Source: Pseudomonas sp. IPO3778 (GTDB lineage: Bacteria > Pseudomonadota > Gammaproteobacteria > Pseudomonadales > Pseudomonadaceae). From it: a DNA stretch of 64,000 nucleotides. How positions within the stretch are numbered: position 1 is the stretch's first letter; each line of letters opens with the position of its first letter. A program made the position numbers and the translations under genes. The notes beneath the pieces were generated by a model. That model saw nothing but the letters and a program-made list of their open reading frames with translations, was not told the DNA's origin and did not search any database. The stretch is taken from NCBI RefSeq assembly GCF_013386825.1, contig NZ_JACARC010000037.1:248001-312000 (forward strand), written 5' to 3'. This document shows, piece after piece, positions 25,133-35,594 of the stretch.

Positions 25133-25462
25133 TTGTCCCAACCCGGCGAAAACCACCAGCTAGCCCTGGACAGATTCCTGAACGAACACCCGGCCCTGGC
25201 TGCAGAACTGAATACGTTGAACCCACTGGCAGCCCAGGCCAAGGGTGAAACCCTCGAGCAGTACCGCGCCGAGCGGCTGCATGAGGTGTTTGAGGCTGAA
25301 GCCGAGCAACAGGGCCTGTTTGCGTGGGAGCTGACGCTGAAATTGACGGCGCAGTCCCCGGCAGAATTCGAAGCCCAGCGCCTTGAGGTGCACAAGGAAG
25401 TGGCGCAGATGGCAGGCCTGAGTTGGGCCGAATATTGTCAGTTGCATGACCTGCCCGGCTAG
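25133..25462 (+). CDS. Conserved Pseudomonas protein (DUF6388-like)
   Basis: A 109-residue soluble, helical, acidic protein starting at TTG 25133 with TGGAG eight bases upstream. Motifs such as RFLNEHPALAAELN, ERLHEVFEAEAEQQGLFAWE and MAGLSWAEYCQLHDL match an uncharacterised Pseudomonas family I recall as DUF6388. It follows the serine hydrolase by 25 bases and may share its transcript. Its last 4 bases overlap the convergent stk1 end. Function unknown. Confidence 0.65.
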   Translation: MSQPGENHQLALDRFLNEHPALAAELNTLNPLAAQAKGETLEQYRAERLHEVFEAEAEQQGLFAWELTLKLTAQSPAEFEAQRLEVHKEVAQMAGLSWAEYCQLHDLPG

Positions 25463-26376
25463 AACCAGCGGCTCAAGCCTTGGCGGGTATCGCTGAGCAC
25501 TGCGCGTAACTCCTCCAGGGTGATTGCCCGGTGCTCAGGGTCGGCCGCCAACGCCGTGCGTAACGCCGGCCAGCATTGGCGAGGCAATTGCCCGGGCCTG
25601 GCGGGCCGGTTACCGGATTGGCGCCGCCCCTGGGCCAATTCGTAGAGCACACACGCCGCTGCGTACAGATCGGCACTGGCCGACAGAGCACCGCCGGCCA
25701 GCAGCTCGGGCGCTGCGTAGGCGGGTGTCCAGGCGTTAAAACGACTTCGATTCAAGGCGGGCGACCCGACGGCTGCCTGCCCGTCGGCCTGGCCCAGTCC
25801 GAAATCGAACAAGCGCAGCCCTCCTTCCCCCACCATCACATTGCCGGGTTTCACATCCCCATGCAGCACGCCTTGCTGATGGCTATGACGCAACCCATCG
25901 AGCAATTGCACGGCGATGCCTTGCAACTCCCGCCACGGCAAGCCGCCGGGGCACTCCAGCAGCAACCGGTCCAGGGTCAGCCCTTGGAGCAGTTCCATGG
26001 TAAAGAAAGCGAGCTGGCAGGACGTATCCACTTCAAACGAAAACACACGCACCACCTGCTCATGCCGAAGGCTGCGCGTCAGGGCAAATTCGCTGTAGAG
26101 CAGCACGTGGGCATCCGCCGACTCGCGGATGGCTTCACCCAGTACCTTGATCGCCACACTGGAGCGCGACTCGCCAAACTGTTCGTGCAGCAAGTCCCGT
26201 GCGCGATAGACCACCCCCATACCGCCAGCACCCAGCACGCGTTCGATACGGTATCGCCCGGCCAGCACTGCAGGTATGCCGTCACGTTGCGGGGGCGCTG
26301 GCGCCTTGGCAAAGGCAAAGTGGGTCAACGGGGGGCTGGGCAGGGGCGCAACCTCGCCATCAGGCCGATCACTCAT
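25459..26376 (-). CDS. stk1: T6SS-associated Ser/Thr protein kinase Stk1
   Basis: A 305-residue Hanks-type kinase. Motifs: glycine loop GAGGMGVVY (residues 49-57), ATP-binding Lys in VAIKV (77), helix-C Glu near YSEFAL (96), catalytic loop HGDVKPGN (172-179) and DFG (191-193). The Arg before the catalytic Asp is Gly, a non-RD kinase. There is no transmembrane helix and no sensor tail. It is the last gene of the T6SS operon, with ATGA overlap (26373-26376) to the phosphatase gene, as stp1-stk1 in Pseudomonas H2-type loci. Such kinases tune secretion, usually through an Fha protein; here the fha gene is missing. Confidence 0.87.
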   Translation of the reverse strand: MSDRPDGEVAPLPSPPLTHFAFAKAPAPPQRDGIPAVLAGRYRIERVLGAGGMGVVYRARDLLHEQFGESRSSVAIKVLGEAIRESADAHVLLYSEFALTRSLRHEQVVRVFSFEVDTSCQLAFFTMELLQGLTLDRLLLECPGGLPWRELQGIAVQLLDGLRHSHQQGVLHGDVKPGNVMVGEGGLRLFDFGLGQADGQAAVGSPALNRSRFNAWTPAYAAPELLAGGALSASADLYAAACVLYELAQGRRQSGNRPARPGQLPRQCWPALRTALAADPEHRAITLEELRAVLSDTRQGLSRWF

Positions 26377-27101
26377 GACTGCACCACCACAGCCGTCAGG
26401 TTGTCCCTGGCAGCACCCCGCAGTACACCTGCGAACAGTTGATCCAGAACCTGCTGTGGGTTTCCCAGGCTCAATGCCTGCCCCAGCTCAGAATGGCTCA
26501 GCGCCTGATACAGGCCATCACTGCACAGCAGAAAAACATCCCCTGCCAAGGTGCTGAGTTCCAATACCTCCAGGCTCAATGGACCCCGCGAACCGATGGC
26601 CCGGGTCAAGGCGCGTGCATCAGGATGAGCCCTGGCCTGCTCCAGGCTCAGCCGCTGATCAAGCAATTGCTCGAACAACGAATGATCCCGCGACAGCTGG
26701 TACAACGTCTGCCCGCGCCACAGGTAGCAACGACTGTCACCGGCCCAGACACACGCCGCGCGATTGCCCTGAAGCAGCAATGCTACGACCGTGCTGCCCA
26801 TGATGCAGTCGGCGCCCTGGCCGGCCAACGTCAGCTCCTCGCCCAGCCGCCGGTTGAGCCCTTGCAGGCAGCGGCGGGTTGCCTCGACCCGTTCGTCCAG
26901 ACTCCCCCGTCCAGGAAGCGACGCCAGGCTATCGACCACCAACTGGCTGGCGACATCCCCCGCCTGATGCCCGCCCATCCCGTCCGCCACAGCCCAGCAG
27001 CCGTGCCGAGGGCAGTCGAGAAAGGCGTCCTCGTTGCGTGACCTGAGCTTGCCACGGTGCGTACGGCCAGCGCTGTACCAGCGAGCCCGCCCCGGGCTCA
27101 C
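26373..27101 (-). CDS. stp1: T6SS-associated PP2C-type protein phosphatase
   Basis: A 242-residue PP2C (PPM) metal-dependent Ser/Thr phosphatase with the standard acidic motifs: RSRNEDAFL, AVADGMGGHQAGDVAS, WAGDSRCYL, LLCSDGLYQ and GAARDNLTAVVV. It opposes the kinase encoded next. The frame is open to 27131, but I place the start at GTG 27101, which overlaps the tssM stop in GTGA and gives the length usual for this family. Confidence 0.87.
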   Translation of the reverse strand: MSPGRARWYSAGRTHRGKLRSRNEDAFLDCPRHGCWAVADGMGGHQAGDVASQLVVDSLASLPGRGSLDERVEATRRCLQGLNRRLGEELTLAGQGADCIMGSTVVALLLQGNRAACVWAGDSRCYLWRGQTLYQLSRDHSLFEQLLDQRLSLEQARAHPDARALTRAIGSRGPLSLEVLELSTLAGDVFLLCSDGLYQALSHSELGQALSLGNPQQVLDQLFAGVLRGAARDNLTAVVVQS

Positions 27102-30100
27102 AACTGCTCCGGCAGGCGGAAGGTACGCCACTGGGCCATCTGAAATGGATTGGGCGTGCGTCGACTGGTCAGCAGGTAATTGGCGCGCAAGCCTGCAAGG
27201 TCCGCCTTGAGGATCAATACATCCTGCCCGCTGGAGGGTTCACTTTGCATCAGGTCGAACAAGCGGAACATGGACCAGGCGCCGGCGTTTTTTTCAATGC
27301 CCAACGGCCGCTCACCACCGCGCTCCAACACCAGGCTGCTGCGCCCATTTTCAGCCTCGCTTGGCCATTGCATCGTCATGGGTACGATCGGCCCGTGGCG
27401 GTACACCATCTGCTGGTCACCCAGACGCAACACCGCGCGACTGACCGCCGGGTCCAGGCTGTAGGGCGCCAGGGTAAAGCGCACCTGCAAGTCTCCCGGG
27501 TCATCCGCAAAAAAACCGCGCCTGATCACCTGCACCTTCGGCTGTTGGTCGAGCAACGCCCGGGACATCGGCAAGCTGCGTCCATCCAGGCTGCGCAGCC
27601 GGTAGCGACCGGCATCACCGCTGACAAAAGGCTTTAGATAGCTGTCAAAAAACCGTGCCATCACCCCCTCGGGCTTGAAGAACTCCTGGAAGTCGTTGAG
27701 GGCGACGTCGCTGCTGGCGTGGGCATTGAACGGGAAACGTTGCTTGATCGCCTTCGCGTAAAAACCATATACCTCACTCTGATAACGCTGGTTCACATGG
27801 CGATAGGCCTGGTCGAGCAAGCGGCGCCAATGCTCATCCGCCAGGCCTTCGAACCAGCCCGTCAGTGGCAACGGCAAGCGTGCAGCAACGTTACGCACAT
27901 TCCCCAGGGCATCCTGCTGCCCCTGAATCCGCCGCTTGACCATCTCAAAGGCGATCGGCTCCGGCGAACCTTCGCGATTCAAGGTCGCCAATTGCAGGTG
28001 CAAGTCGTTGAGTGCCTGCAACGCCTGGGTCAATTCGGCACCTGGGTTCTGCTGGTTGTCCAGCAATTGGTGCAGCGGCTCGAAGCGGCGCTGCAGTGCA
28101 CGCCGCGCCGTGTCGGGCGGCGTGCCGGCCAACCCCGCTCGGACACCCGCGGTGGCGGCCTGGGCAACCTGCCCCAGTGCTGTCGCAGGCCCTGGCAATT
28201 TGGCAGACAGGTCCTCCAGGTGCTCGTTGACCGATGGCAGGCGCGTGTTATCACGAACCTGTTGCAGCATCTGCAACAACGGTGACTGGGCAGACGCCAG
28301 GCTGGCGAGTTGCTCGGCACCTTGCCGGGCGTTGTCAGTTTCACGTAGACGAATCCGCCCAAGCGCCTCGCTCCATGCATCGGCATACTCGCTGAAATAG
28401 CGTTGCTCAAGCGCCACCATCAGCCGTTGCAAATCCATGGCGCTCAGGTCAGCCCCCTCCCCCAACACCCAGTTATCCTGGACGATGGTGTTCACCAGTC
28501 GTGCACCCTGCTCCTCGAAATGGCGCAGGTACTTCCTGGTATAAAAACCCGGAATGGGACGGTCGGCCCCGTCAAATACCAGCCCCTGGGCAAGGCGGTA
28601 AGGTTCGAGGCTGCGAGCTTGTTCCCGCAGCACGCGGTACACCACATCCACCAGTGACTCCCCCCGCAACACGTGACGTGCCTGGGCCACCAGCTCGGTA
28701 TTGAGCGGCTGCACGAACGGCTGTTCAAGCAAGCGCGCAAAGTGTTCATTCAGACGACTTTGCACCGAGGGCTCACCGGCAAAACGTATCGACCAATACC
28801 CCGCCACTCGTTCACGCAACCAACTGGCATCCCGACGCTCCTTCAGGTCAAGCATCAGGTACGCGCGGAGGTTGTCCAGCAGCCGCTCGCGATCCTCCAG
28901 GCTGCCGCGTACCTGCTCCTCCAGCATCTCGCTGACCTGGGACAGCAGCAACTGACCCAAGGCGTGCCCATAGGCCTGTTCCAATACGGGACGGCTGATA
29001 TCGCCTTGATACAAACCCATCCGCTCCGCCAGTCTGGCCCCACCCTGAACCGGGAAAACCCGAGTGGCCGCCAGGCGACTGTCCAACAGGGGCAGGAGCG
29101 CCAGCGTAGTGTCCGACCCAGGCGGTACGGTCGCGGGAGGTCGCATCAGCTCCCGCAGTTGCTCCAGGCGCTGGTGGTTGAACGCGTAACTGCGGGTCCA
29201 AAGCAAGCCCGCCGCCCCGACAACCAGCAGCGCGCCCAGGGTCAGCAGCCCCTGGCGCCAGCGAATCCGACGTCGCTCCTGGCTATCGAGACCCGCCAGG
29301 TTGGCCTCTGCCAGAATCACCCGGCTGAACAAACCCTGGATGAAGTGCGCGCGAGGCCCCGGTGCCCCTGGGCCACCGTCCGCACTGGTCAGGTAGAAAC
29401 CACGAAATCCATTGGCGTGCCGATAACGCGGGCCGCAGAAGGCAACGTCGATGTACAGGCTCAACCGTTCGCCAATCCGTGCCGCCTGCTGGGGGAAATC
29501 GAGCATCCGGCCGCGCAGGTCGCTGTTACGCTCCTGGTGCAGGCGCTGCACAAGTTCACCGCTCAAGCGCTGAAGCAGCGCTTCGAACGCCTGGCGTACC
29601 TGGCCAATTTCAATACCGCCTTTGCCTGCGACGACAGATTCACCGAGCACCGCCTCACTGCCCTCGCCCAATGGACGGTCGAAGAACTCCGCAAATCCCG
29701 GCAGACGGTCCGCCTGGGTCACCACCAGATAGATCGGCACGTCCACATGCAATGTCTGCCGGATTTCCTGCAGCCGGCTTTGGACCGCCCGTGCGTCACT
29801 CTCCAGCTCCCGCTCGCTGCCATGGAGTAGGGTATCCATTGACAACGTCACCACCACGCCATTGAGCGGGCGTGTTCCGCTACGCCTCTTCAGCAGGCCC
29901 AGCAGCGTCGACCATCCCGCGCTATCCACACGACTGTCAGGCTGAGTGAGGTAGCGACCAGCCGTATCGAGCAAAACGCCGTCTTCGGCGAAATGCCAAT
30001 CACAGCAGCGGGTTCCACTGGCATCAGCCGTGGACTCGGTTCGATCCTGAAGCCGTTGCAGGCCACTGGCCGCCAACAGTCGGGTCTTGCCACTGCCGGC

Positions 30101-30505
30101 CTTGCCAATCAGCAGGTACCACGGCAACGCACTGCGCCAGCGCGGGCTGCGCTCACCATAAACCCGAGCGTTTTTCAGGGTGTAGAGCGCGTCCTTGAAA
30201 CGCCGTCGCAGCTGCCGCTGCTCGTTGTCGACCAGGCCTTTGCGCTGGCGCAGCTCAACATTATCGGGGGCTCCCTGACGGGCCATGCGCCGCCAACTGG
30301 CATAGACCATGGCCAGGCCCCACACCAGGAACAGCACGCTGATCGTCAGCAAACGCGCCGACGATGTTTGCCAGAATCGATAATCATCGACGGCCAGCAA
30401 CGGCCCGAAAAACCACACCGTCATCGCGACCAAGAGCACCAGTAACAGGCTCCAGACCCAAATCCTGCCCAGCACGGTGCACGCGCCCTTGAAGAATGCG
30501 TTCAT
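27098..30505 (-). CDS. tssM: T6SS membrane complex protein TssM (IcmF)
   Basis: A 1135-residue IcmF-family inner membrane protein, the scaffold of the T6SS membrane complex. Two N-terminal helices (residues ~17-37 and ~51-70) are followed by a cytoplasmic domain with Walker A GKAGSGKT (134-141), a third membrane helix near residue 420 (GLLTLGALLVVGAAGLLWTR), and the long periplasmic part that binds TssJ. The length is normal and the frame uninterrupted. The partner lipoprotein TssJ survives only as a C-terminal scrap, so a normal TssJLM complex cannot form from this locus. Confidence 0.94.
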   Translation of the reverse strand: MNAFFKGACTVLGRIWVWSLLLVLLVAMTVWFFGPLLAVDDYRFWQTSSARLLTISVLFLVWGLAMVYASWRRMARQGAPDNVELRQRKGLVDNEQRQLRRRFKDALYTLKNARVYGERSPRWRSALPWYLLIGKAGSGKTRLLAASGLQRLQDRTESTADASGTRCCDWHFAEDGVLLDTAGRYLTQPDSRVDSAGWSTLLGLLKRRSGTRPLNGVVVTLSMDTLLHGSERELESDARAVQSRLQEIRQTLHVDVPIYLVVTQADRLPGFAEFFDRPLGEGSEAVLGESVVAGKGGIEIGQVRQAFEALLQRLSGELVQRLHQERNSDLRGRMLDFPQQAARIGERLSLYIDVAFCGPRYRHANGFRGFYLTSADGGPGAPGPRAHFIQGLFSRVILAEANLAGLDSQERRRIRWRQGLLTLGALLVVGAAGLLWTRSYAFNHQRLEQLRELMRPPATVPPGSDTTLALLPLLDSRLAATRVFPVQGGARLAERMGLYQGDISRPVLEQAYGHALGQLLLSQVSEMLEEQVRGSLEDRERLLDNLRAYLMLDLKERRDASWLRERVAGYWSIRFAGEPSVQSRLNEHFARLLEQPFVQPLNTELVAQARHVLRGESLVDVVYRVLREQARSLEPYRLAQGLVFDGADRPIPGFYTRKYLRHFEEQGARLVNTIVQDNWVLGEGADLSAMDLQRLMVALEQRYFSEYADAWSEALGRIRLRETDNARQGAEQLASLASAQSPLLQMLQQVRDNTRLPSVNEHLEDLSAKLPGPATALGQVAQAATAGVRAGLAGTPPDTARRALQRRFEPLHQLLDNQQNPGAELTQALQALNDLHLQLATLNREGSPEPIAFEMVKRRIQGQQDALGNVRNVAARLPLPLTGWFEGLADEHWRRLLDQAYRHVNQRYQSEVYGFYAKAIKQRFPFNAHASSDVALNDFQEFFKPEGVMARFFDSYLKPFVSGDAGRYRLRSLDGRSLPMSRALLDQQPKVQVIRRGFFADDPGDLQVRFTLAPYSLDPAVSRAVLRLGDQQMVYRHGPIVPMTMQWPSEAENGRSSLVLERGGERPLGIEKNAGAWSMFRLFDLMQSEPSSGQDVLILKADLAGLRANYLLTSRRTPNPFQMAQWRTFRLPEQL

Positions 30506-30520: not shown

Positions 30521-31381
30521 TTAGAGCGGCGCCCGGGTAATATCCGGCGCCACGGGTTGATACGGTTGCAGCACCGTCTCGCGCTGTTGGCCCAGAACCC
30601 AGGCAAACCCGCCATATAGGGTCAACAGACAGGCCACGACAAAGACCGCGATCCAGGTTGCCGACACCCCTCTCAGCCGGCCCTGACGCTGTGCTTGCGC
30701 CCTGGGCGGCGGTTCACAGGCGGGAGGCGAATCGCCCCGCACGTGCCGAATCTGCCGATACAGTGCATCCCGCACCTGTTCGAGCTGCAACAAGCCGCGC
30801 TCCATGACCCGGTACTTACCCTCAAACCCGAGTGACAGGCACAGGTACATCAGCTCCAGCATCGCCAGGTGCTTGAAAGGGTCCCTCGACATCCGCTCAA
30901 GCAGCTGGAAAAATTTCTCGCCGCCGAAGGTTTCGTTATGAAAGCTGCTCAGCAGGCTCATCTTCGACCAGTCGCTCTGGCTGCCCCATGAGGTGGTGAG
31001 CACCGCTTCGTCGATCACACTGCACAGCACATAGCGCGCCGCCATGACCTCGCTGCCTTGTGCGCCGTCATGCCGGGCCCGGGTTTCGAACAGCGTGACC
31101 GCCGCTGACAACCGCTCGTTGAGCGCCCGCAGGCTTTCCTGCGCGCTACTGCGCTTGAGTTGCACCACCTCGGACAACAGCTCCCAGGCAGGTGCTACCA
31201 GGCTGTTCAAGCCAACGTTGAAGTGCTCCGCGCCCTGCGCGCGGGCGGCGTAAATCATCCGGTCTTCCAGTTGTTCGAAGCGGGGCGGCGACGTGAAGTC
31301 GGTTATCGGCCCCTGCGCAGGTGCTCGACCCTGCCGATCGAGCAGGACGGTTTTCTCGTCCTGCGGATATTCCCTGTCCAT
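30521..31381 (-). CDS. tssL: T6SS membrane complex protein TssL (DotU/IcmH)
   Basis: A 286-residue DotU-family protein: a cytoplasmic helical domain (DRMIYAARAQGAEHFNVGLN; YVLCSVIDEAVLTTSWG; FEGKYRVMERG) followed by one C-terminal membrane helix (TWIAVFVVACLLTLYGGFAW). It lacks the OmpA-like peptidoglycan-binding extension. It starts 4 bases after the tssK stop and ends 15 bases before tssM. Confidence 0.93.
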   Translation of the reverse strand: MDREYPQDEKTVLLDRQGRAPAQGPITDFTSPPRFEQLEDRMIYAARAQGAEHFNVGLNSLVAPAWELLSEVVQLKRSSAQESLRALNERLSAAVTLFETRARHDGAQGSEVMAARYVLCSVIDEAVLTTSWGSQSDWSKMSLLSSFHNETFGGEKFFQLLERMSRDPFKHLAMLELMYLCLSLGFEGKYRVMERGLLQLEQVRDALYRQIRHVRGDSPPACEPPPRAQAQRQGRLRGVSATWIAVFVVACLLTLYGGFAWVLGQQRETVLQPYQPVAPDITRAPL

Positions 31382-31385
31382 GGTC

Positions 31386-32714
31386 TCAGTTCCTGATGGC
31401 CCAGAATTTCAGTTCCAATTCGGCGAATTCGCCGCTGACGTGGAAGGCAAACCCTCCCGATTGCTTCAATTGCTCGATGTCGCGAGCACCGAGTTCAAGC
31501 ATGAAATAGGTTTTTGCGGCATGAAACGGTATCTGCCGGGGCGCCACTGGCAACGGCTTGACCTTGATGCCCGCCAGGTGCAGGTTGACCAACTCGCGAA
31601 TCCGCTCCACGGGGCCGACCTTGAGGTGCGCCGGAAGGCGGTGACGCAATTCCTCGGAGTCACAATGAGCACTGGCGGCCAGGATGAAGGTCGCCGAATC
31701 CAGCAGGTTCAGATCGCTCACCGGGCACACCAACACCCCGTATTGGCGGGGCTGCAGCACAAGCTCGATGGCATGCTGCTCAAGTACCATCGACAGCAGG
31801 CTGCGAATCGGCTCCATCAGCCCGCGAAAGCTGGCGCCCTGGTCGCTGTGGCGGTAATGCCCCTCGAAGTGCGCCCGCTTGCTGTCACTGCCAAACGTGG
31901 CAAGTTCACCCAGGATCGACAGCAGCGTTCGATACAGCGCTTCAGGGCTGACCTGGCTCTGCCCCAGGTAGTGACGCAAGACCAGCTCGGAGCGATTGAT
32001 CAGTTGCAACATCAGGAAGTCTCCGACCTCCGCGCCTGCGGCGGTGCCGTTGGCGCGAATCCGCGCGGCAATGGCGTCCCCCCGGTAAGCGAGCAGGCTG
32101 ATCACCTCCTTGAGGCAAGACAGCAGATACCCGGAGCCATGCAGGTGGATGAACGTCGGGATAAAGTCGGCATCCAGGCTGACGCCCTCCTCCGTGCGGC
32201 TGAGTACCTGGGCAACCTTGAGTTTCACGTACTCCTGGCCGCTGTGGGACTCCCCCAACAGCGAGCGAAAATCCAGCTGGCCGCACATGATCTGACGACG
32301 AGAGTCCTCCCCTGCGTTGGAATCGCCGACGTCTGCCGCCAGGGTCTTGTAGCGCGCCACTACATCAACCTGTTCGGGCCGACGGGCTTCAACACTGTTA
32401 CTCGTGGCCAACGGCAGGGCCAGGTATACCGGCTGCCTTGCGCTATTCTCGGGAACCTCCAGCACCAGCGACTCCATGGCTGCACCCATTTCAAACAGGC
32501 TGCCATCAGGCAATATCCCGCTGGCCCGGCTGATGACGACCTTGCCCAGGCTGAGGTATTGCACATCGATTTCCAGGGCCAGGAAACCCCAGGCGTGAGC
32601 GCACAACAACTGGGTACGGCGCTGGACTTGCTGTTCGTGGTAGCGATCGTTTTGCTGAAAATGCTGAGGGCGCAACAGCATGCCTTCCTGCCAGATGACT
32701 TTTTGGCTGTGCAT
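31386..32714 (-). CDS. tssK: T6SS baseplate protein TssK
   Basis: A 442-residue TssK that links the baseplate to the membrane complex through TssL/TssM. The family opening is present (VIWQEGMLLRPQHFQQNDRY), as are the QYGVLVCPVSD region and the C-terminal domain ending ELELKFWAIRN. ATG 32714 follows the tssJ remnant's stop by one base (TGACATG), preserving the original operon junction. Other baseplate genes (tssE, tssF, tssG) are absent. Confidence 0.94.
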   Translation of the reverse strand: MHSQKVIWQEGMLLRPQHFQQNDRYHEQQVQRRTQLLCAHAWGFLALEIDVQYLSLGKVVISRASGILPDGSLFEMGAAMESLVLEVPENSARQPVYLALPLATSNSVEARRPEQVDVVARYKTLAADVGDSNAGEDSRRQIMCGQLDFRSLLGESHSGQEYVKLKVAQVLSRTEEGVSLDADFIPTFIHLHGSGYLLSCLKEVISLLAYRGDAIAARIRANGTAAGAEVGDFLMLQLINRSELVLRHYLGQSQVSPEALYRTLLSILGELATFGSDSKRAHFEGHYRHSDQGASFRGLMEPIRSLLSMVLEQHAIELVLQPRQYGVLVCPVSDLNLLDSATFILAASAHCDSEELRHRLPAHLKVGPVERIRELVNLHLAGIKVKPLPVAPRQIPFHAAKTYFMLELGARDIEQLKQSGGFAFHVSGEFAELELKFWAIRN

Positions 32715-32715
32715 G

Positions 32716-32907
32716 TCAGTCACCCGCCTTGGCCGGCTGCGGGCTCGCCAACCGGATACCGGCCTGATCAAGGACCAGTTCGGCGCGTGTCACTTGCTGC
32801 GCAGTCACCGGCAACACATAGCGCCATTGCGAGTGGGGCAAATCACGGTAGGCCGCCAGCACGCCGACATACCGGCTGCCGGGCTCCAGACTGAGCTTGA
32901 GCGTGGT
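32716..32907 (-). pseudogene. tssJ: 'tssJ remnant: last ~63 codons of the T6SS lipoprotein
   Basis: Read in the frame ending at the TGA directly before tssK, this stretch translates as TTLKLSLEPGSRYVGVLAAY, RDLPHSQWRYVLPVTAQQVT and on to QPAKAGD. That is the C-terminal half of a TssJ/SciN/Lip outer membrane lipoprotein (strand with GSRYVGV, then AYRD and the WR motif). The signal peptide, lipobox and N-terminal half are missing. Upstream it runs directly, out of frame, into the 5' part of tssB. Confidence 0.88.
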
Positions 32908-33029
32908 GTGAAGTCCCCTAGCACCAGCAGTTTCAACGGCAGCTCGACCTCTTCCTGTGCGGCGCCAACGGCGGGTTTGAACGTGATATTGATGCGTTCC
33001 TTAGGGGCTACCGAACCTTCTTTCGCCAT
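32908..33029 (-). pseudogene. tssB: tssB' remnant: first ~41 codons of the sheath protein
   Basis: ATG 33029 with AAGGAG upstream begins MAKEGSVAPKERINITFKPA, and continues through EELPLKLLVLGDFT-like sequence typical of the start of TssB/VipA, the small subunit of the contractile sheath. After about 41 residues the family match stops at the joint with tssJ. The combined open frame runs on for ~33 unrelated residues to a stop at 32805, giving a 74-residue chimera. TssB is normally ~165 residues, so this cannot form sheath. Confidence 0.9.
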
Positions 33030-33061
33030 GGTGTTTCTCCTTTTTCGTGTGGCTCGAAAGC

Positions 33062-34603
33062 CTATTCAAGTACCGCTTCCAGATCGAAGTGGCACAGCCT
33101 GCGGTGGACTTCTTCCTTGCGCTCACGCACGGAATGGCTTTGCGGCAACGCATCACAACAGCCATACAAGAGTTGCAGCACTTCAACCGCCAGTTCGGGC
33201 TCCCAGCGCTGCAAGCCTGATTGCTGCAGTTCTTGGTCCAGGTGGTCGAGCTGGACTTTGGCAAGGTCCTGCTTGCCTGCCAGGACAGACAACCTGGCCA
33301 GGCCAAGCCGCCAATGAAATCTGGCGCGGTCACCTGTTGCGGTTTGCATACCTTGCTTGAGCGACCGGACGGCAGCCTTGAAACCGTCCTTGCGCAGCAC
33401 AGGCATGACCTCGTGCAGCGCGGTGTCCCAAGGCGCTGCCTGGGCATCAAGGGCGGACCGGGGGGATACCGGAGCCTGGAAATGGCGTGCAACCTGGGTG
33501 TTGATCCAGCCTCGGGTGACAGGGTCGGCGAAGGGTGTGCCATCGTGGAAGCGCAACGGGACGAGCCCCGGCAATCGCTGAAGCAACAAGGCGAAGTGCA
33601 CTTCCAGTTCGGTCATGGCCAGATCGGCCTGAAGTGCCTGCAGGCATTCCCAAACCCTGTACAAACCGTCAAACCAGAAAGGTGCGCAGGCCAGGCTGGC
33701 CTCCAGCTCCAACAACAGGTCGGCGTGCTGCCCCTGGGCAAAGCGCTCCTGATAACGCTTGAGCTTGTCCGGTGCCGGGCCTCGCAAAGGCGTCACCTGC
33801 TCGGCGTCACAGTCCGGCAGGCTGGTGATCGTCAACCAGGTCAGCGTTCGGCCCAGACGCAGCGCGCGCAGGTCAGTGGCATTCTGGCGCTGCCACCAGG
33901 CACACAAGGGCCGGGCACTCTCCTGCAGCGTGCGCAGCAGCTTATGGGCGTCCTTTTCGCTATCCACGACAGGCTCGGTGGCCAGCAACTGAGTCGCCAC
34001 CTGCTTGATCTGAGCAATCACACCCGGTGGAGGATCGCTCTCGCCGGACTGCTGCAACCGGTCCGACAACTGCCTGCGAATCGGCAGTAACAGCGGAGCC
34101 TCATCCGCGAGATGTTCGGCCCATAGCTCATCCAGCCGGGCCAGGTGTTCGAGCATGCAGTGGAACAACGGCCGCTGGTCTTTGAACGACAGGTTTTGCG
34201 CAAGTACCTGTTCGAGGCGCGGGACCAGCCAGCCAAATGCAGCACTGCGGGTACGCAGCTTGCCCGGGTACACGACTGCCCAATGATGCTCACAGAGGTA
34301 GCGCAACAACCCCAGGCCTGCGAGCAATCCGGGGAAGGACTCGCGCTGATGCAAGGCCCAGGTCAACCAGACAGCGACACGCAAATCCTTGGACTTATGA
34401 CGCAACAGCGCTTCGCTTTTTTCCACGACCCACTGCCAGTCAGGCTGACTGTTACCGTGCATGGAATTGGACTTGCCCAGTTCGACTTCCAGTGCCTCAT
34501 ACTCGGTCGAAAAACGCATATCGGCACCCGCAAAACTCGCTTTCGAGTTGGGCGCCTGCGCAAGTTCCAGGTAATAATCGGAAAGTCTGTCTGAATAAAC
34601 CAT
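33062..34603 (-). CDS. tssA: T6SS protein TssA (ImpA N-terminal family)
   Basis: A ~513-residue TssA of the long VasJ-like kind. The N-terminal ImpA domain shows VWLTWALHQRESFPGLLAGL and a nearby LCEHHWAVVYPG. The C-terminal region, from about WINTQVARHFQAP, has the repeat-rich helices ending VRERKEEVHRRLCHFDLEAV. TssA caps or primes sheath assembly. It is the first gene of the operon, 32 bases before tssB'. I start it at ATG 34603 (MVYSDRLSDYYLELAQ); an upstream codon at 34615 is open. Confidence 0.88.
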   Translation of the reverse strand: MVYSDRLSDYYLELAQAPNSKASFAGADMRFSTEYEALEVELGKSNSMHGNSQPDWQWVVEKSEALLRHKSKDLRVAVWLTWALHQRESFPGLLAGLGLLRYLCEHHWAVVYPGKLRTRSAAFGWLVPRLEQVLAQNLSFKDQRPLFHCMLEHLARLDELWAEHLADEAPLLLPIRRQLSDRLQQSGESDPPPGVIAQIKQVATQLLATEPVVDSEKDAHKLLRTLQESARPLCAWWQRQNATDLRALRLGRTLTWLTITSLPDCDAEQVTPLRGPAPDKLKRYQERFAQGQHADLLLELEASLACAPFWFDGLYRVWECLQALQADLAMTELEVHFALLLQRLPGLVPLRFHDGTPFADPVTRGWINTQVARHFQAPVSPRSALDAQAAPWDTALHEVMPVLRKDGFKAAVRSLKQGMQTATGDRARFHWRLGLARLSVLAGKQDLAKVQLDHLDQELQQSGLQRWEPELAVEVLQLLYGCCDALPQSHSVRERKEEVHRRLCHFDLEAVLE

Positions 34604-34880
34604 GATGGGCCGCACGTTACTTTCCAGGACGTATTCAGCGAACTAATGGTATTTAACCCCAGATTAGAACACTGCTTGAAGTTCGCCTTCCCGGCGGGAA
34701 GAGCACGAACCTTATCCATGAAAAATTCAATGTTCAAGCCACGAAACGACGATTAAGGAATTTCCTACAAAGATACAAACCTCGCTAATGCGCAACAGTT
34801 TGCACAGTAAAAACAGTGACTAACGTCATAAATAAAGCAAAACCTACAGATAAAACCACCCATCGACATGAGCAACTAAC

Positions 34881-35078: not shown

Positions 35079-35594
35079 ATGCCAACACCCGCGTATCTTT
35101 CCATCACCGGCACCAAGCAAGGCTTGATTACGGCAGGCACGTTCACCCAGGACTCGGTCGGCAACATTTACCAGGAAGGCCATGAAGACCAGATCCTGGT
35201 CGAGGCATTCCAGCATCAGGTAATCATTCCCCGTGACCCGCAATCCGGCCAGCCCACAGGCCAGCGCGTGCATAAACCCCTGATGATCAGCAAGGTGTTC
35301 GATAAGTCGTCGCCGCTGCTGTTCAGCGCATTGACCTCGGGGGAAATGGTCAAGTGCCGCCTTGAGTGGTACCGCACGTCTTCAGCCGGCACCCAGGAGC
35401 ACTACTTCACTATCGAACTGGAAGACGCGATTCTGGTGGACATCCAGTCACGGATGCCCAACTGCCAGGACCCGAGCAATGCACACTTCACGCACCTGGA
35501 GGATGTGTACTTCACGTACCGGAAAATCGTCTGGACCCATGAGGTGTCCGGCACCTCGGGTTCTGATGATTGGCGCAGCCCGGTAGCCGGCTAA
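35079..35594 (+). CDS. hcp: T6SS tube protein Hcp
   Basis: A 171-residue Hcp, the hexameric inner-tube and secreted marker protein of T6SS. Family features: MPTPAYLSITGTKQGLI, the loop GHEDQILVEAFQHQVIIPRD, HKPLMISKVFDKSSPLLFSAL and YFTIELEDAILVDI. It is divergent from tssA under an apparent sigma-54 promoter. Since the adjacent sheath genes are deleted, it is an orphan here and could only work with another T6SS elsewhere. It ends at a hairpin shared with the aldo/keto reductase gene. Confidence 0.94.
   Translation: MPTPAYLSITGTKQGLITAGTFTQDSVGNIYQEGHEDQILVEAFQHQVIIPRDPQSGQPTGQRVHKPLMISKVFDKSSPLLFSALTSGEMVKCRLEWYRTSSAGTQEHYFTIELEDAILVDIQSRMPNCQDPSNAHFTHLEDVYFTYRKIVWTHEVSGTSGSDDWRSPVAG

What the first reader, a model, noticed from the sequence alone, without database searches (positions are those of the whole stretch)
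32716..33029. T6SS locus gutted by one internal deletion that fuses tssB' to 'tssJ
Seen in sequence: the minus-strand ATG at 33029 begins a clear TssB for ~41 residues (to LLVLGDFT), then at about 32907-32912 the DNA continues as the C-terminal ~63 codons of TssJ in another frame, ending one base before tssK. Flanking genes tssA, tssK, tssL, tssM, stp1 and stk1 are all full length and open. In H2-type Pseudomonas loci the genes between these points are tssC, tssE, tssF, tssG, clpV, a sigma-54 activator and fha. Their loss removes the sheath, baseplate and ATPase. The good state of the rest suggests a recent event, or that TssA-K-L-M plus kinase/phosphatase are kept for some other use.
Basis: partly seen in the sequence, partly recalled or inferred. 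Interest (0 to 1): 0.85.

Follow-up and report, generated by a model that had tools for sequence, protein, structure and literature searches.

The report
Recently gutted spare bacterial secretion system
A Pseudomonas bacterium has lost the middle 10.8 kilobases of one of its three toxin-injecting (type VI secretion) gene clusters in what looks like a single recent deletion, an ordinary kind of gene loss, while one other cluster looks complete and a third nearly so.

Summary
On the minus strand an intact tssA is followed by 41 codons of tssB, then, out of frame, by the last 64 codons of tssJ, then by open tssK, tssL, tssM, stp1 and stk1. Six close Pseudomonas relatives have about 10.8 kb between the two points; in the one whose interval genes I scanned these are the rest of tssB, tssC, tssE, tssF, tssG, clpV, a sigma-54 activator, fha and the start of tssJ. 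The segment is nowhere else in the assembly. The joint was found in 1 of 398 Pseudomonas genomes, this one. Only a 4-base word is shared at the joint, so I read it as one illegitimate deletion, not an assembly collapse. Own-only changes in the broken ends are 5 of 6 silent, and the remaining 8.8 kb of coding sequence is open, so the event is recent. Of the genome's two other type VI clusters one looks complete; the other lacks only a recognisable tssJ. Loss of type VI clusters by deletion is already published in P. aeruginosa and Enterobacter. This is a new member of a known kind, of low interest. A by-product may be worth more: a small stand-alone gene like the TssB C-terminus.

The parts
35079..35594 (+). 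hcp (tssD), divergent from the cluster, intact
   Evidence: TIGR03344, 229.5 bits, cut-off 58.9; same place in the three relatives compared
33062..34603 (-). tssA, intact (513 aa)
   Evidence: TIGR03362, 402.9 bits, cut-off 230.1 (scanned from an earlier start at 34615); relatives 516-517 aa
32907..33029 (-). tssB remnant, first 41 codons (frame runs on to a stop at 32805-32807 as a 74-aa ORF)
32908..32911 (-). deletion joint, 4-base word TCAC
   Evidence: present on the left side in six of six relatives and on the right side in four of six
32716..32910 (-). tssJ remnant, last 64 codons and stop, no start, out of frame with tssB'
   Evidence: full tssJ of L062 named
31386..32714 (-). tssK, intact (442 aa)
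   Evidence: TIGR03353, 437.4 bits, cut-off 100; same length in seven of seven relatives
30521..31381 (-). tssL, intact (286 aa)
   Evidence: TIGR03349, 218.9 bits, cut-off 89.95
27098..30505 (-). tssM, intact (1135 aa)
   Evidence: TIGR03348, 975.2 bits, cut-off 388.15
26373..27131 (-). stp1, PP2C-type phosphatase, open
   Evidence: NF033484 at 164.2 bits, below that model's cut-off of 230; 85-87% identical over full length in three relatives
25459..26376 (-). stk1, Ser/Thr kinase, open
   Evidence: NF033483 at 139.2 bits, below that model's cut-off of 450; 81-86% identical in three relatives

Best explanation
An H2-type T6SS cluster of a Pseudomonas (relatives include P. yamanorum) lost about 10.8 kb in one illegitimate deletion between tssB codon 41 and tssJ, probably through a 4-base microhomology. 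Shown: the joint, the gene content of the locus in a close relative, absence of the segment from the assembly, and two other T6SS clusters, one complete by the models scanned and one lacking only a recognisable TssJ. Inferred: the cluster can no longer build a sheath, TssEFG baseplate wedge, ClpV, FHA or TssJ, so it is a dead secretion system; the loss is recent and tolerated because other T6SSs remain; what is left is starting to decay.
For: In six closest relatives the two halves of the joint query lie about 11 kb apart, with 10,803-10,840 bp between the break points in the five measured. Lost genes named by NCBIfam in L062. The 10.86-kb interval of L062 finds at best 74% identity in the own genome apart from stretches of 35-84 bases. 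Joint 34-mer with up to 3 mismatches: 1 of 398 genomes. TssC of L062 at E <= 1e-200: 274 of 398 genomes, not own (three candidates scored per genome; some of the 274, at 1e-205 to 1e-228, may be another T6SS type). No 10-mer shared within 300 bp of the two break points in L062. Own-only changes in the remnants: 5 silent, 1 not, P = 0.0046 if 25% of changes were silent. 8,799 nt of remaining genes are open.
Against: No reads or second isolate of this species could be examined, and the genome is a 159-contig draft. The TCAC word on the right side is present in four of six relatives only, so microhomology as the cause is inferred. Lineage-specific rates in tssA/K/L/M are only weakly raised (pooled p 0.03 to 0.53), so relaxed selection is not shown. 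The C138 cluster has no recognisable TssJ, nor has its counterpart in G080; if that system borrows a TssJ, the loss here may not be free of cost.
Confidence: 0.92

Rival explanations
1. Assembly artefact: the strain has the full cluster and the assembler joined two distant points.
For: Draft assembly of 159 contigs; no reads available.
Against: Only 4 bases are shared at the joint and no 10-mer is shared within 300 bp of the two break points in L062, so a repeat-driven collapse is unlikely. The 10.8 kb is not left over on any other contig. The joint is about 44 kb inside a 325-kb contig.
Confidence: 0.05
2. Functional reduction: TssA, TssK, TssL, TssM, Stp1 and Stk1 are kept by selection for a non-secretion role or to serve the other two T6SSs.
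For: All these genes are open and pairwise dN/dS of tssA/K/L/M is 0.08-0.16 to the six close relatives. One of the other clusters (C138) has no recognisable TssJ, so sharing of membrane-complex parts between clusters is conceivable, though tssJ is what was lost here.
Against: The dead remnants show the same constrained pattern (5 of 6 own-only changes silent), so the pattern predates the deletion. An unconstrained divergence up to about 0.01 (nonsense only) would be expected to leave no lesion at the 5% level. Identity to the genome's other TssA/K/L/M is only 25-46% over the aligned parts. The joint is in no other of 398 genomes. TssJ and the cluster's sigma-54 activator are gone.
Confidence: 0.04
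3. Established tssB-tssJ fusion gene shared by a lineage.
For: None.
Against: Out of frame; found in 1 of 398 Pseudomonas genomes, one genome per species.
Confidence: 0.01

Closest known systems
H2-T6SS apparatus cluster loss in Pseudomonas aeruginosa (PMC11751169; passages seen)
   Same: Loss of an H2 cluster whose deletion affects almost exclusively T6SS genes; 38 putative loss events among H1-H3 clusters reported; no strain there had fewer than two T6SSs.
   Different: Different species; the H1 and H3 losses there are parts of deletions over 100 kb. The passages do not say where within the cluster the H2 deletion ends; here both ends lie inside genes and about 8.8 kb of cluster coding sequence remains.
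Degraded T6SS clusters of Enterobacter bugandensis E104107 (PMC10763514; passages seen)
   Same: A deletion within tssC removed almost a whole cluster, leaving tssBC remnants; a second cluster is incomplete after deletion; a complete cluster remains.
   Different: Other family and other subtype (i2); different break points; in its incomplete cluster tssJ and tssM are absent, here tssL and tssM are kept and tssJ is cut.
   Same: Same locus; gene order read in K2I15; flanking genes the same in P. yamanorum and K2I15.
   Different: They have the 10.8 kb that is missing here.

Membership tests
H2-type T6SS locus (by origin) | Gene order tssA-B-C-E-F-G-clpV-sigma54 activator-fha-J-K-L-M-stp1-stk1 in the orthologous locus | tested here: met
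   Full order read in one relative, G116. The H2 label itself is recalled from P. aeruginosa and comes from no call on this locus.
H2-type T6SS locus (by origin) | Remaining genes are orthologues of those loci | tested here: met
   84-89% DNA identity to six relatives on both sides of the joint; flanks outside the cluster the same in the three relatives compared.
Functional T6SS | Complete core set of apparatus genes in this cluster | tested here: not met
   tssC, E, F, G and clpV absent, tssB and tssJ truncated.
Functional T6SS | Secretion or killing activity | not testable with these tools
   Needs an experiment.
T6SS cluster lost by internal deletion | Fuller cluster at the same place in close relatives | tested here: met
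T6SS cluster lost by internal deletion | Missing genes not relocated in the genome | tested here: met
   the two tssC genes lie in other clusters and fall short of E 1e-200 against the G116 TssC.
T6SS cluster lost by internal deletion | Joint confirmed in reads or a second isolate | not testable with these tools
   No reads; one genome per species held.

The most novel reading that the evidence does not exclude
The leftover TssA-TssK-TssL-TssM-Stp1-Stk1 set, with Hcp, has been kept for a job other than secretion, such as lending membrane-complex or signalling parts to the genome's two other T6SSs.
Probability: 0.04. Interest if true: 0.6.

Novelty: new member of a known kind. Interest (0 to 1): 0.2.

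Why it matters
It is a clean, recent snapshot of how a redundant T6SS dies: one deletion without long flanking repeats takes out the sheath, baseplate wedge and ATPase, while the rest of the operon has not yet decayed. It is useful as a loss event and as a caution that presence of tssK/L/M or hcp does not mean a working T6SS. It changes no general view.

Tried and rejected
Assembly collapse was looked for by checking shared words at the two break points, repeats in the window (one pair of 16 bases, 81% alike, 415 bases apart, one copy on each side of the joint but neither at it) and leftover sequence elsewhere in the genome; nothing supported it. A relocated segment was considered because of a TssB C-terminal match at C97:9696-9836. 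It proved to be a separate, conserved small gene, not the missing piece.

G380 seemed to lack an orthologous TssC (best E 1.3e-223) despite both halves. Its locus holds matches to all nine interval genes at 46-82% identity, so it is not a second case. I made no systematic count of broken H2 clusters across the genus; the row lists were cut.

A relaxed-selection test by lineage-specific silent and replacement counts was weak: pooled p 0.53, 0.08, 0.11, 0.11 and 0.03 for five non-independent outgroups, with a slightly larger share of replacement changes in this lineage. A sigma-54 site scan gave 14 matches against 18.4 expected and was dropped. Papers with Pseudomonas yamanorum and type VI secretion: none in the library. 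The plasmid search gave 9 records, all at 60-80% identity, none covering 80% of the query. On re-checking I found that my first wording, two further complete clusters, was too strong: C138 has no recognisable TssJ. The odds did not change.

Full report
This is in the sequence. From the ATG at 33029, 41 codons of TssB are read, then 33 unrelated residues to a stop. The tail of tssJ, 64 codons and a stop at 32716-32910, lies in a different frame and ends one base before tssK. No fused protein is encoded. tssA, tssK, tssL, tssM and hcp score above the cut-off of at least one NCBIfam model; stp1 and stk1 are open, match phosphatase and kinase models below those models' cut-offs, and are 81-87% identical to their counterparts in three relatives.

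Relatives show what is missing. The window lies in a 7.13-Mb, 159-contig genome that is a Pseudomonas by its named relatives. A 1001-base query over the joint matched at E <= 0.001 in 28 of 57 genomes and 268 of 398 genus genomes, the own genome counted in both; some of these matches are weak and may be other T6SS types. Among the rows listed (the list was cut) only the own genome matched over the whole query. In the six closest (G116, G069, G360, G282, G304, G080; DNA identity 84-89%) the two halves lie about 11 kb apart, with 10,840, 10,806, 10,808, 10,803 and 10,806 bp between the break points in five (G116, G360, G282, G304, G080) and about 10.84 kb in G069 by the coordinates. In G116 the interval carries, by NCBIfam, the rest of tssB, then tssC, tssE, tssF, tssG, tssH/clpV, a sigma-54-dependent regulator, tagH/fha and the start of tssJ. 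I scanned the interval genes of G116 only. Genes outside the cluster on both sides are the same in the three relatives compared, G116, G069 and G360.

The missing DNA is not elsewhere. Searching the own genome with the 10.86-kb interval of G116 gave 33 matches, the best at 74% identity over 441 bases; only stretches of 35-84 bases were closer, at 76-89%. Two tssC genes exist, on contigs C97 and C138. No own candidate reached E 1e-200 against the G116 TssC (three of five scored), whereas 274 of 398 genus genomes have one that does; part of those 274 score only 1e-205 to 1e-228 and may be another type. The joint, allowing three mismatches, occurs in 1 of 398 genomes, the own one.

The joint has a 4-base word, TCAC, present on the left side in six of six relatives and on the right side in four of six. 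No 10-base word is shared within 300 bases of the two break points in L062. Within 32600-33200 of the window the only direct repeat found is a 16-base pair, 81% alike, not at the joint. A repeat-driven assembly error is therefore unlikely, and illegitimate recombination is the simplest cause. This is inference; no reads were available.

The event is recent. Among positions where six relatives agree, the own genome has 3 silent and 0 replacement changes in the 41-codon tssB remnant and 2 silent and 1 replacement in 63 codons of the tssJ remnant. Five or more silent of six has probability 0.0046 if a quarter of changes were silent, as without constraint, and 0.011 at 30%. The remnants can have no tssB or tssJ function now, so most of these changes are older than the deletion. 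The 8,799 coding bases of tssA, tssK, tssL, tssM, stp1 and stk1 are open at near-full length. Counting nonsense changes alone, this bounds unconstrained divergence at about 0.010 per site (5% level), and at about 0.003-0.005 with assumed indel rates, against dS of 0.37-0.46 to G116. Pairwise dN/dS of tssA, K, L and M to the six close relatives is 0.08-0.16. Replacement changes make up a slightly larger share in the own lineage than in G116 (pooled p 0.03 to 0.53 with five non-independent outgroups), so relaxation is at most hinted at.

The genome is not without T6SSs. On C97, TssB, C, E, F, G, J, K, L and M and full-length ClpV, Hcp and TssA match their models. On C138, TssM, L, K, ClpV, G, F, E, C, B and A and FHA and VgrG match, but the TssJ model finds nothing there: in the own genome it finds only the C97 gene and the window's remnant. 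In G080, whose TssK is 97% identical to that of C138, no TssJ match lies near that TssK either, so lack of a recognisable TssJ may be normal for that cluster type. In the five other relatives the best match to the C138 TssK is a 53-54% identical one with a TssJ match beside it. Identities of the window's TssA/K/L/M to those of the two other clusters are 25-46% over the aligned parts.

Mechanism: without full TssB, TssC, TssE, TssF, TssG, ClpV and TssJ this locus cannot build a sheath, baseplate wedge or complete membrane complex (established T6SS knowledge, recalled). It is best read as a dead cluster at an early stage. The idea that its remains serve another purpose is possible but has no positive support.

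Known precedents: in P. aeruginosa 38 putative loss events of H1-H3 clusters were inferred; H1 and H3 losses there are parts of deletions over 100 kb, while the H2 deletion affects almost exclusively T6SS genes (PMC11751169, passages). In Enterobacter bugandensis a deletion in tssC removed nearly a whole cluster and left tssBC remnants (PMC10763514, passages). This finding is a further case.

By-product: a 94-codon gene at C97:9651-9932 of the own genome matches the last third of TssB (Pfam T6SS_VipA 107-153 of 155, E 1.8e-7; PDB chains 5mxn, 5ojq and 5urw at their C-terminal parts). In 99 genus genomes searched, own included, 73 had a match, most of them to ordinary TssB genes; matches of 58-82% identity away from the genome's TssB match were seen in 9 besides the own. 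Short frames of 79-135 aa at 47-51% identity in G058, G065 and G086 were not counted. In the 5 of these 9 whose surroundings were compared, two neighbouring genes are the same as in the own genome. Over 46 core codons own and G116 differ by 18 silent and 1 replacement change. One paper search (TssB, orphan, truncated, type VI secretion, small protein) listed three papers; from titles and abstract starts none describes it. It may be a regulator or decoy of sheath assembly; this is a guess.

Noticed in passing
Own genome G000:C97:9651-9932 minus (L069:9651-9932); relatives L087-L091: A 94-codon stand-alone gene resembling only the C-terminal part of TssB/VipA, far from the T6SS clusters, with the same two neighbouring genes in five compared relatives and 18 silent against 1 replacement difference to G116 over 46 codons. 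Possibly a sheath decoy or regulator.
   Followed up: partly
Own genome C138 0.1-21.4 kb (L081, L071, L103): A T6SS cluster with all other core genes scanned but no recognisable TssJ; the same holds near the 97% identical TssK of G080. Such a system may use another TssJ or none.
   Followed up: partly
Own genome C138, L103:4105-4791 minus and L103:3525-4019 minus: Between vgrG and clpV of that cluster: a protein with a weak YopT-type/C58 cysteine protease match and a GNAT-like protein, perhaps an effector and a partner.
   Followed up: no
G031:C2:189588-189767: A TssB-like match with one internal TGA in a relative that also has two other TssB-like matches, perhaps another decaying T6SS.
   Followed up: no
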